A stretch of DNA of 35,653 bases from assembly GCA_003139855.1 (NCBI GenBank), contig PLGY01000051.1:29193-64845 (forward strand), in the 5' to 3' direction. A program made the position numbers and the translations under genes. Source of the DNA: Candidatus Methanoflorens stordalenmirensis (lineage in GTDB: Archaea; Halobacteriota; Bog-38; Methanoflorentales; Methanoflorentaceae). Numbering within the stretch: position 1 is the stretch's first letter; each line of letters opens with the position of its first letter. A model generated the notes under the pieces. It saw nothing but the letters and a program-made list of their open reading frames with translations, made no database searches and was not told the origin of the DNA. Shown here in pieces: positions 16,439 to 18,928 of the stretch.

Positions 16439-17002
16439 TCACACTTGATCAAGCATTTGATCGGACATGCCTTCCATCTCGTCTTGCGAAGGCCCTTTCT
16501 CAAACGTAGCGGCTTGAATCACGTCGTCTATTCGAAGGATCATGTTCGCGGCTTCGGTGGCCGACAAGATGGCCTGCTTCTTCGTTCTGAGAGGTTCGAT
16601 CACGTCAGGCCACATGTCTGTTGCTTTTCCTGTCGAAATCTGGAGCCCCATCGTTTTATTTCCCGATTCGTGAGCGGTCCTCAAACCAACAAGCGAGTCC
16701 ATGGGGTCCAAACCCGAGTTTTCGGCAAGCGTTTTTGGAATAATTTCGATCGCGTCGGCAAAGGCGATGACTGCCAGTTGCTCTCTACCGCTGAGGGTCG
16801 ACGCATAGTCACGGAGTTGCATCGCGATCTCAACCTCCGGAGCGCTGCCTCCCGCGACGACTTTGCCATCTTCGATCGATGCTTGAACGACTCGAACCGC
16901 GTCGTACACAGCTCGGTGAGTTTCTTCGACGATATGATCGGCTCCCCCGTGAATCACGATACTGACGACGCGAGGGTTTTTACAGTCTTTGATTGTTATC
17001 AT
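16439..17002 (-). CDS. Thermosome, C-terminal half (split gene)
   Basis: This 187-residue protein is the C-terminal part of a group II chaperonin subunit: the end of the apical domain, the second intermediate segment and the second equatorial segment. It starts MITIKDCKNPRVV, which aligns with the CKNPKAV region found inside intact thermosomes. It keeps EDGKVVAGGSAPEVE, GREQLAVIAFADAIEIIPK, GNKTMGL and EAANMILRIDDVI, and ends with a Met/Gln tail, as chaperonins do. GGAGG lies 9 bases before the ATG. Its frame differs from that of the first half, which stops 14 bases upstream. Both halves look well conserved, so a working split chaperonin is possible; a recent frameshift or an assembly error is the alternative. 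Confidence 0.85.
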   Translation of the reverse strand: MITIKDCKNPRVVSIVIHGGADHIVEETHRAVYDAVRVVQASIEDGKVVAGGSAPEVEIAMQLRDYASTLSGREQLAVIAFADAIEIIPKTLAENSGLDPMDSLVGLRTAHESGNKTMGLQISTGKATDMWPDVIEPLRTKKQAILSATEAANMILRIDDVIQAATFEKGPSQDEMEGMSDQMLDQV

Positions 17003-17016
17003 TCCTAGGCCTCCGT

Positions 17017-18111
17017 CTAATCAATGCCGCAGGTGTCACAGCCAGATTCGATGTCAGTTGTTTCTTCGATTTCGCCCGCGTTGCCCAGGTCTGATGCGCT
17101 GAGATCATTCAGGCTGGACACCACTCGGGCGCCGCTCACCTTGGAAATCGTCTCAATGTCCTCGCGTTTCACGTTCTCCACTGCCATCACGTTATTACGC
17201 GAAAAGTGCCATTGGAGTAGATCGTCGATACCCTTCTGGCAAAAGACGACGTTAGCGCCGCTTGCCAAGATCTTGTCAGCCTTCTCGATCAGCGTTTCAT
17301 GATCGCGTTCCATGAAGAGTTTCATTTGCGTTGGATCTTTTATTTTGATTTTGGCATCGGTCTTTGTTTTGGTAAGCTCGAGTGGTTGGTCATACACAAG
17401 GATGCGCGCGTCGCATACTTTTCGCGGCATTCCCTCGGCCGCGCGCTCCTTGTCTACAACGATGCCTTCTACGAGTTCTGAATCGGAAACGGAACCGGAA
17501 ACCTTCTTTTCAATTCTGATGTCTTCCTCGTCGACCTTGTACGTGTTGTCGACTTTTTGCGCTACCATTTTCACCGCTTCAACAACGAGCTGCGGAAGTA
17601 TCTCAGTGCCCACGTCAGTGCCTTTGCCCGTGAGCGCCGTCTTTGCAATCTTTTTCAGCAGATCGTCATCGCGAATCGAAACGTTGCGCGACAGCAGTTC
17701 GGCGATCTCAATCGCTTTTTCTGCGGCGAGGCCGTAGCCTTTCTCTATAACCGTCGGGTGGATGTCTTGATCGAGCAATTCTTCTGCGTTTTTTAGCAGT
17801 TCCCCAGCCAAGATAACCGCCGTTGTTGTCCCGTCGCCCACTTCATCATCCTGCGTTTTAGCGACTTCAACCATCATCTTAGCTGCTGGATGCTCAATAT
17901 CCATCTCCTTCAATATCGTCGCGCCGTCGTTCGTTATAACCACATCGCCCATCGAATCAACGAGCATCTTGTCCATGCCTTTCGGTCCGAGCGTAGTTCG
18001 CACTGATTCAGCTACGGCCCTGCTCGCGGTAAAATTCATTGACTGGGCTTCCCTGCCCTTCGTCCTTTGTGTTCCTTCGCGTAGAATGAGAATAGGTTGA
18101 CCACCAATCAC
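17017..18111 (-). CDS. Thermosome, N-terminal half (split gene)
   Basis: This 364-residue protein is the N-terminal two thirds of a group II chaperonin subunit (ATP-dependent protein folding in a double-ring complex). It has [35 protein letters not shown] and the nucleotide-binding [16 protein letters not shown]. Normal sequence continues to [13 protein letters not shown]; the next 14 residues, ending GCDTCGID, are unlike chaperonins and lead to a stop. The start is GTG 18111 (giving [17 protein letters not shown]) with GGAGG 8 bases upstream and a strong TATA box. The frame is open another 140 codons upstream, but that part is a decayed MFS gene. The second half follows in another frame. Confidence 0.88.
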
Positions 18112-18329: not shown

Positions 18330-18795
18330 CCAACTCGGCTACCGCGATAAGCGGGCAGATGATGGCTCCAAGCGTACCGAGAGAGCGTTCGAAGCCGAAT
18401 AACCTTCCCGTGCCGAGGCTCTTTGACTCAGAAACAATAGCATATACGCGCCCGTGGCTGACGCCCTCCAAGGCGATCAAACAACTGTCTTGCCAAGACT
18501 TGCTGCCACTGCCTTGCAGTTGATACTGCAAGCAAGGGCTTCGCGATCGCTGCGATGGTTTAGCCGGATTACACGAGGGACTCGCATTTCCCGAATCTGT
18601 CTAAGAGGAATACGGAAATTATCGTTGCATGCTTGCGGTGCTTTCGACGTATGCTATGAGGCCCACGTCAATGAGCGCCGCTCCCAGGACGTTAACAATA
18701 AAAGAGGAATGACCGGATAGATCTTCTCCGCGCTCATCGGCGAGCAGACTTACGATCCCAAGGATTGCGACGTTCAAACTAATGCCAAAAACGAG
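18330..18795 (-). pseudogene. Decayed MFS transporter gene
   Basis: Pieces of a major facilitator protein can be read in order on the minus strand, in changing frames. First, near 18782-18622, LNVAILGIVSLLADE and VNVLGAALIDVGLIAY, then VESTAS, as at the N-terminus of MFS permeases; this frame ends in a TAA at 18619. Then, from about 18607, LLDRFGKCESLV, a stop, SG, a stop, TIAAIAKPLLAVSTA and QVLARQLFDRLGGR, which correspond to the loop 2-3 motif and helices 3-4. Then, in a third frame near 18440-18330, GRLFGFERSLGTLGAIICPL, the following helix. At least two in-frame stops and two frame changes show that it is dead. The third piece is in frame with the thermosome gene and artificially lengthens it. 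Confidence 0.7.
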
Positions 18796-18928
18796 GGCTC
18801 CTTTAGAGAATCTCCCCCCTGAACATCTGCACAGCGCTTAGCTTTTCAGATTTGAAAACTGTCTAAGGATGAAAAGGCGTCTATTAGCGATAAGATTAAG
18901 ATTGTGCAGCATAAAGGATACTGGAATC

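What the first reader, a model, noticed from the sequence alone, without database searches (positions are those of the whole stretch)
16439..18111. Thermosome subunit split into two reading frames, the second with its own ribosome binding site
The chaperonin gene is interrupted in the apical domain. The first half ends in a 14-residue non-chaperonin tail containing CDTC; the second half starts 14 bases later in another frame with GGAGG and ATG. Compared with intact thermosomes, which have about 21 bases between the VEE and the M before CKNP, this gene has 59, so a net insertion of about 38 bases caused the split. No other damage is visible in either half, and equatorial, intermediate and apical motifs are all kept. 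A two-piece chaperonin subunit would be new; the simpler options are a recent mutation or an assembly error.
Basis: partly seen in the sequence, partly recalled or inferred. Interest (0 to 1): 0.8.

Follow-up and report, generated by a model that had tools for sequence, protein, structure and literature searches.

The report
Conserved two-piece archaeal chaperonin subunit
In a genus of uncultured methane-producing archaea, one of the genes for the barrel-shaped protein-folding machine is cut into two adjacent genes at exactly the same place in every species examined, with both pieces kept intact by selection, so the folding machine probably uses a subunit built from two separate chains.

Summary
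The split is real and is neither a recent mutation nor an assembly error. All 7 held genomes of the genus (6 species; the window's own in two independent assemblies) carry the same break in the same loop. In each, the N-half ends in an extra tail, ES(S/G)CDTC(G/A)I, and a stop codon. The C-half starts 14-15 nt further on, at ATG-ITIK(D/N)CKNP, behind a Shine-Dalgarno-like motif. The stop (TAG or TGA) and the relative frame vary, no pyrrolysyl-tRNA synthetase is found, and the tail evolves as protein-coding sequence. This argues against readthrough, frameshifting and an intron.

Both halves are under strong purifying selection (dN/dS about 0.03-0.13), close to the two intact paralogs (0.02-0.09), while the neighbouring transporter gene has decayed to a pseudogene in the window's species.

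The ATPase site needs both pieces: GDGTT is in the N-half, the Asp equivalent to Mm-cpn D386 in the C-half. The break falls in a beta-hairpin turn just apical of the apical-intermediate hinge, near the engineered GroEL permutant CP376, which stays active.

Best reading: a fixed two-chain group II chaperonin subunit. The pieces have not been seen as proteins, their assembly is inferred, and the role of the CDTC tail is unknown.

The parts
17017..18111 (-). N-half of the thermosome subunit (GTG start, 364 aa, TAG stop): N-terminal equatorial part, intermediate part and most of the apical domain with the lid region
   Evidence: Pfam PF00118 positions 1-318; NCBIfam thermosome_alpha/beta positions 1-348; dN/dS 0.05-0.13
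17020..17061 (-). Clade-specific C-terminal tail of the N-half, [14 protein letters not shown], replacing the 6-7-residue loop of other thermosomes
   Evidence: conserved in 7 of 7 genomes of the genus and absent from the 387 others sampled in the phylum; up to 8 synonymous and 0 nonsynonymous differences, P = 2.6e-6 under neutrality
17029..17040 (-). CDTC motif in the tail
   Evidence: invariant in all six species with synonymous changes
17010..17014 (-). Shine-Dalgarno GGAGG of the C-half, pairing with the 16S end CACCTCC
   Evidence: duplex energy -9.5 kcal/mol; the genome's own 16S ends GGATCACCTCCT; the core stays while the rest of the spacer varies
16439..17002 (-). C-half of the thermosome subunit (ATG, 187 aa, TGA stop): last apical strand, intermediate part and C-terminal equatorial part
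   Evidence: Pfam PF00118 positions 324-489; dN/dS 0.03-0.09
17821..17838 (-). GDGTTT nucleotide-binding motif, on the N-half
   Evidence: invariant in the 43-sequence alignment
16901..16903 (-). Asp codon equivalent to Mm-cpn D386 (ATP hydrolysis), on the C-half
   Evidence: ungapped phmmer alignment of C-half residue 34 with Mm-cpn 386; invariant column; D386A blocks hydrolysis (PMC5019054)
18120..18124 (-). Shine-Dalgarno GGAGG of the N-half, 8 nt before its GTG start
   Evidence: the same GGAGG and GTG occur in L006-L009

Best explanation
This is a group II chaperonin (thermosome) subunit encoded as two adjacent cistrons that became fixed in the common ancestor of the genus. One transcript would give two polypeptides: the ribosome stops after the CDTC tail and the C-half is started at its own Shine-Dalgarno 14-15 nt downstream, probably by coupled re-initiation. 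The two chains would fold together without a peptide bond. The equatorial domain and ATP site are completed by both chains (GDGTT from the N-half, catalytic Asp from the C-half), and the last apical beta-strand from the C-half pairs with the strand that ends the N-half, so the chain is broken only at the tip of a beta-hairpin. The subunit would join rings, alone or with the two intact paralogs. One of the two strands that link the apical and intermediate domains is thereby freed from one end, which should loosen the coupling of lid movement to ATP hydrolysis. SHOWN here: the split, its conservation, the frames, the SD motifs, purifying selection on both halves and the tail, and conserved catalytic residues. 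INFERRED: co-transcription, coupled translation, co-assembly, altered coupling, and any function of the tail.
For: The same break and tail are in 7 of 7 genomes (6 species) of the genus, at 81-95% protein identity. An independent assembly of the same species agrees. dN/dS of the N-half is 0.05-0.13, of the C-half 0.03-0.09, of both together 0.05-0.11, against 0.02-0.09 for two intact paralogs. The tail has 8 synonymous and 0 nonsynonymous differences between L007 and L009, P = 2.6e-6. In the spacer between stop and ATG only the GAGG core is kept and the rest varies, as expected of a ribosome binding site. It pairs with the genome's own 16S end. The adjacent MFS gene is intact in G001-G004 but is a wreck in both assemblies of the window's species, so this locus does show decay where selection is absent. 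All ATPase motifs are kept and divided between the two chains. The read-through model (pLDDT 83, pTM 0.78) has the normal group II fold (TM 0.85-0.89 to 3rus/1q3s) with the break between strands 343-354 and 368-377 in a disordered turn. The engineered GroEL permutant CP376, cut at the apical-intermediate hinge, assembles and keeps ATPase and folding activity (PMC3196576).
Against: No transcript or protein data. All genomes are MAGs. The split subunit is not the only thermosome (two intact paralogs), so it could have taken on another role. Its omega is slightly higher than that of the paralogs, its stem branch is long (0.92), and it departs from otherwise conserved residues, including GGG to GGS at 423 near the nucleotide site and RRVKKSD to ENVKRED at 312-318. 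The model is of a joined chain, not of two chains, and says nothing on ring assembly.
Confidence: 0.8

Rival explanations
1. Recent mutation or assembly/sequencing error in one genome.
For: MAG with 76 contigs.
Against: The split is in 7 of 7 genomes of the genus from separate assemblies, including a second assembly of the same species; both halves are under purifying selection.
Confidence: 0.01
2. One polypeptide made by recoding: pyrrolysine or other stop readthrough, or programmed frameshifting.
For: In G001-G004 the frame behind the TAG is open into the C-half.
Against: In G000/G060 and in G005 the C-half is in another frame; G005 uses TGA. The residues between TAG and ATG vary freely (TEVLG, REVPT, REVQA) and are not conserved as protein. 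No PylS above cut-off in 7 genomes. The ATG has its own SD in all. No single recoding event works in all species.
Confidence: 0.03
3. An archaeal bulge-helix-bulge intron of 35-39 nt that is spliced out.
For: Excess length of about 35, 38 and 39 nt is compatible with removal to a constant exon; short archaeal introns in protein genes are known (cbf5, from memory).
Against: The extra stretch evolves as coding sequence of the N-half; the region does not fold better than shuffles (z = +1.2); the consensus fold has no supportive covariation (+1.16 kcal/mol term, one compensated pair); an intron would not need a conserved SD and ATG.
Confidence: 0.02
4. The two pieces are both made and selected, but they no longer act as a ring chaperonin subunit; the N-half and/or C-half has been repurposed.
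For: Long stem branch, departures at conserved apical and nucleotide-site residues, two intact paralogs present.
Against: Each half covers an interrupted, non-autonomous part of the fold (equatorial and intermediate domains are each built from both halves), and both remain adjacent, undamaged and constrained; catalytic residues are kept in both halves, which is only expected if they meet in one ATP site.
Confidence: 0.12
5. Decaying pseudogene in an early stage in which both ORFs remain open by chance.
For: A split reading frame next to a decayed MFS gene.
Against: dS reaches saturation between G005 and the others, while dN is only 0.08-0.17; no further stops or indels in either half in any species; the neighbouring MFS pseudogene shows what real decay looks like.
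Confidence: 0.02

Closest known systems
Archaeal thermosome / group II chaperonin (e.g. Mm-cpn, Thermococcus KS-1 alpha, T. acidophilum thermosome)
   Same: Full-length homology across both halves, 52% identity and TM 0.85-0.89 of the joined model to solved structures, catalytic motifs and lid region present.
   Different: The subunit is two polypeptides, with an extra CDTC-containing tail at the break and clade-specific changes in the apical segment 300-330.
Circularly permuted GroEL CP376 (engineered; PMC3196576)
   Same: Chain ends placed at the apical-intermediate junction; assembled, ATPase and refolding activity kept, apical movement uncoordinated.
   Different: Engineered, group I, one chain with joined native ends; here a natural group II subunit is cut into two chains a few residues to the apical side of the equivalent position.
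Circularly permuted Sulfolobus HSP60 beta (linker/ends moved to the apical region; cited in PMC11596651)
   Same: A group II subunit that tolerates new chain ends in the apical domain and still forms rings.
   Different: Engineered and still one chain; the new ends lie at another apical site.
Split archaeal genes such as rpoA (RNA polymerase A'/A'')
   Same: An ancestral single gene fixed as two adjacent genes whose products assemble (general knowledge; split rpoA is mentioned in PMC4084955).
   Different: Affects a chaperonin subunit; restricted here to one genus; a new conserved tail has appeared at the break.

Membership tests
Group II chaperonin (thermosome) | Sequence homology over equatorial, intermediate and apical domains | tested here: met
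   PF00118 positions 1-318 and 324-489 in the two halves; NCBIfam NF041082/NF041083
Group II chaperonin (thermosome) | ATPase residues ([16 protein letters not shown], catalytic Asp equivalent to D386) | tested here: met
   the third Gly of GGG is Ser (423), a departure
Group II chaperonin (thermosome) | Built-in lid (helical protrusion) in the apical domain instead of GroES | tested here: met
   The N-half aligns without deletion to the lid region of 1q3r; low local confidence in the model at 249-254
Group II chaperonin (thermosome) | Subunit is a single polypeptide of about 540 residues | tested here: not met
   Two ORFs of 364 and 187 codons in all genomes of the genus; so it is filed as a variant, not as an ordinary member
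Group II chaperonin (thermosome) | Forms 8- or 9-fold double rings with ATP-driven closing | not testable with these tools
   needs protein work
Pyrrolysine-containing protein (TAG readthrough) | PylS in the genome and open frame behind TAG in all orthologs | tested here: not met
   no PylS above cut-off; frame not kept in G000/G060/G005, TGA in G005
Archaeal BHB intron in an mRNA | Stable bulge-helix-bulge structure, intron sequence non-coding | tested here: not met
   no structure beyond shuffles, no covariation, extra bases coding

The most novel reading that the evidence does not exclude
A natural two-chain chaperonin subunit in which the conserved CDTC tail at the break, next to the conserved Cys of CKNP on the other chain, acts as a redox- or metal-controlled clasp that joins or frees the apical domain and so tunes the folding cycle.
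Probability: 0.15. Interest if true: 0.88.

Novelty: new variant of a known kind. Interest (0 to 1): 0.68.

Why it matters
Chaperonin subunits are treated as single chains whose two hinge strands carry the ATP signal to the apical domain. A lineage in which nature has cut one of those strands and kept it cut across six species is a natural experiment on which links are needed. It gives a testable system: two chains whose joining can be restored or changed. It also shows that a chaperonin subunit can evolve into a two-gene product, as RNA polymerase subunits did. It matters for annotation too, since such loci are normally flagged as frameshifted pseudogenes.

Tried and rejected
Assembly error and recent mutation: rejected. 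Pyrrolysine or other readthrough and frameshifting: rejected by variable frame and stop, absent PylS and non-conserved spacer residues. Intron: no significant fold, no covariation, coding evolution of the extra bases. Rfam and tRNA scans of the window: nothing. Bacterial-type promoter scan is not informative for archaea. Paper searches for split chaperonins or thermosomes gave no precedent; the library lacks most subscription journals, so this is weak evidence of novelty. The record PMYA01000057 could not be looked up for annotation.

Full report
OBSERVATION. On the minus strand the window holds a thermosome gene in two pieces: an N-half of 364 codons (18111..17017, GTG start, TAG stop) and a C-half of 187 codons (17002..16439, ATG start) in another frame, 14 nt behind the stop and preceded by GGAGG. 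The halves match positions 1-318 and 324-489 of the 490-position Pfam model PF00118, so nothing of the chaperonin is missing. Homology of the N-half to solved thermosomes stops at residue 351; the last 13 residues, [13 protein letters not shown], are extra. Other thermosomes have a short loop at this place. The same MAG (2.06 Mb, 85% complete) has two intact thermosome genes elsewhere.

CONSERVATION. A search of 60 related genomes showed that every genome of the same genus has an N-half that ends at the same point. Reading the loci and a motif search over 394 genomes of the phylum gave 7 genomes of the genus (six species, the window's own twice), all with the split. The tail reads ETTDIES(S/G)CDTCGID in five species (one I for T and one E for D) and ETTDVESGCDTCAI in the most distant, G005. 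The stop is TAG in all but G005, where it is TGA. The spacer from stop to ATG is 14 nt in the window's species (both assemblies) and in G005, and 15 nt in the others. None of the other 387 genomes has the tail motif, and the intact thermosomes listed for other families are single frames except those cut by contig ends. One locus in the named collection (L035, Euryarchaeota archaeon fen_29, PMYA01000057) equals G003.

SELECTION. Nei-Gojobori estimates: N-half dN/dS 0.05-0.13, C-half 0.03-0.09, both together 0.05-0.11; the two intact paralogs of the same genomes give 0.04-0.09 for near pairs and 0.02-0.04 for more distant ones. The split gene is thus slightly less constrained than the paralogs but far from neutral. 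Against G005, dS is saturated while dN is 0.08-0.17. The tail by itself has 8 synonymous and 0 nonsynonymous differences between L007 and L009 (P = 2.6e-6 if neutral). The spacer behaves otherwise: TEVLG, REVPT and REVQA if read in frame, with only the GAGG core kept. An internal control lies next door: between enolase and the split gene, G001-G004 have an intact MFS transporter, whereas both assemblies of the window's species hold only fragments with frameshifts. Decay in this place is visible when selection is absent, and the split gene does not show it.

WHAT IT IS NOT. Readthrough and frameshifting need a fixed frame relation; there is none, one species has TGA, and no PylS reaches its cut-off in the genus. 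An intron is disfavoured because the extra bases evolve as protein, the region folds no better than shuffled sequence and the consensus structure has no supportive covariation.

ANATOMY AND MECHANISM. The break lies in the turn of a beta-hairpin (strands 343-354 and 368-377 of the read-through model of L006, made only to place the break; pLDDT 83.1, pTM 0.78, turn of low confidence). The model matches Mm-cpn and Thermococcus chaperonins (TM-score 0.85-0.89). In GroEL terms it is just apical of residue 376, since the C-half aligns to GroEL profiles from about position 376 at its residue 13-16. Equatorial and intermediate domains are each built from both halves, so neither half can make them alone. 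The GDGTT motif is on the N-half, the Asp equivalent to Mm-cpn D386 on the C-half; D386A blocks hydrolysis in Mm-cpn (PMC5019054). Both halves have SD motifs that can pair with the genome's own 16S end, GGATCACCTCCT. The likely process is therefore one message, stop, re-initiation 14-15 nt on, and assembly of two chains into one subunit. This is inference; transcripts and proteins were not available.

FUNCTIONAL HINTS. Of the columns conserved in at least 90% of intact thermosomes, the split clade departs from 9 of 16 in residues 300-330 but from 15 of 169 elsewhere (Fisher P = 1.5e-5); five other clades show no such cluster. The region was chosen after seeing the list, so the P value is optimistic. 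The changes (for example RRVKKSD to ENVKRED) are in the apical domain and suggest adaptation there. GroEL CP376, with chain ends at hinge 2, assembled and kept ATPase and refolding activity but its apical domains moved without coordination (PMC3196576). By analogy the split subunit should be active with altered lid coupling. The CDTC tail could form a disulfide, bind metal, or merely cap the strand; a clasp with the Cys of CKNP on the other chain is a guess.

ORGANISM. The genus carries McrA, so it is a methanogen. The closest named record is a fen MAG. It may be the Methanoflorens lineage (GTDB genus Bog-38 according to PMC10805028), but I could not test that.

NOVELTY. Searches for 'split chaperonin' and related terms found no report, within an open-access library only. 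I rate it a new variant of a known kind: a group II chaperonin with a fixed two-chain subunit.

Noticed in passing
window 18337-18819 (minus strand): Decayed MFS transporter gene between enolase and the split thermosome (42% identity in fragments to the intact copy in L035); intact in G001-G004, broken in both assemblies of the window's species.
   Followed up: yes
C59 and C45 of the same genome (L126, L121): Two intact thermosome paralogs; type A carries a long GGM-rich C-terminal tail, type B and the split subunit do not.
   Followed up: partly
window 16901-17838; residues 312-318 and 423 in L006 read-through numbering: Clade-specific departures from nearly invariant thermosome residues: RRVKKSD to ENVKRED in the apical domain and GGG to GGS near the nucleotide site.
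   Followed up: partly
G000:C62:76475-76510: 3' end of a 16S rRNA gene on the same contig as the window, with the canonical anti-Shine-Dalgarno; could be used to place the organism.
   Followed up: no
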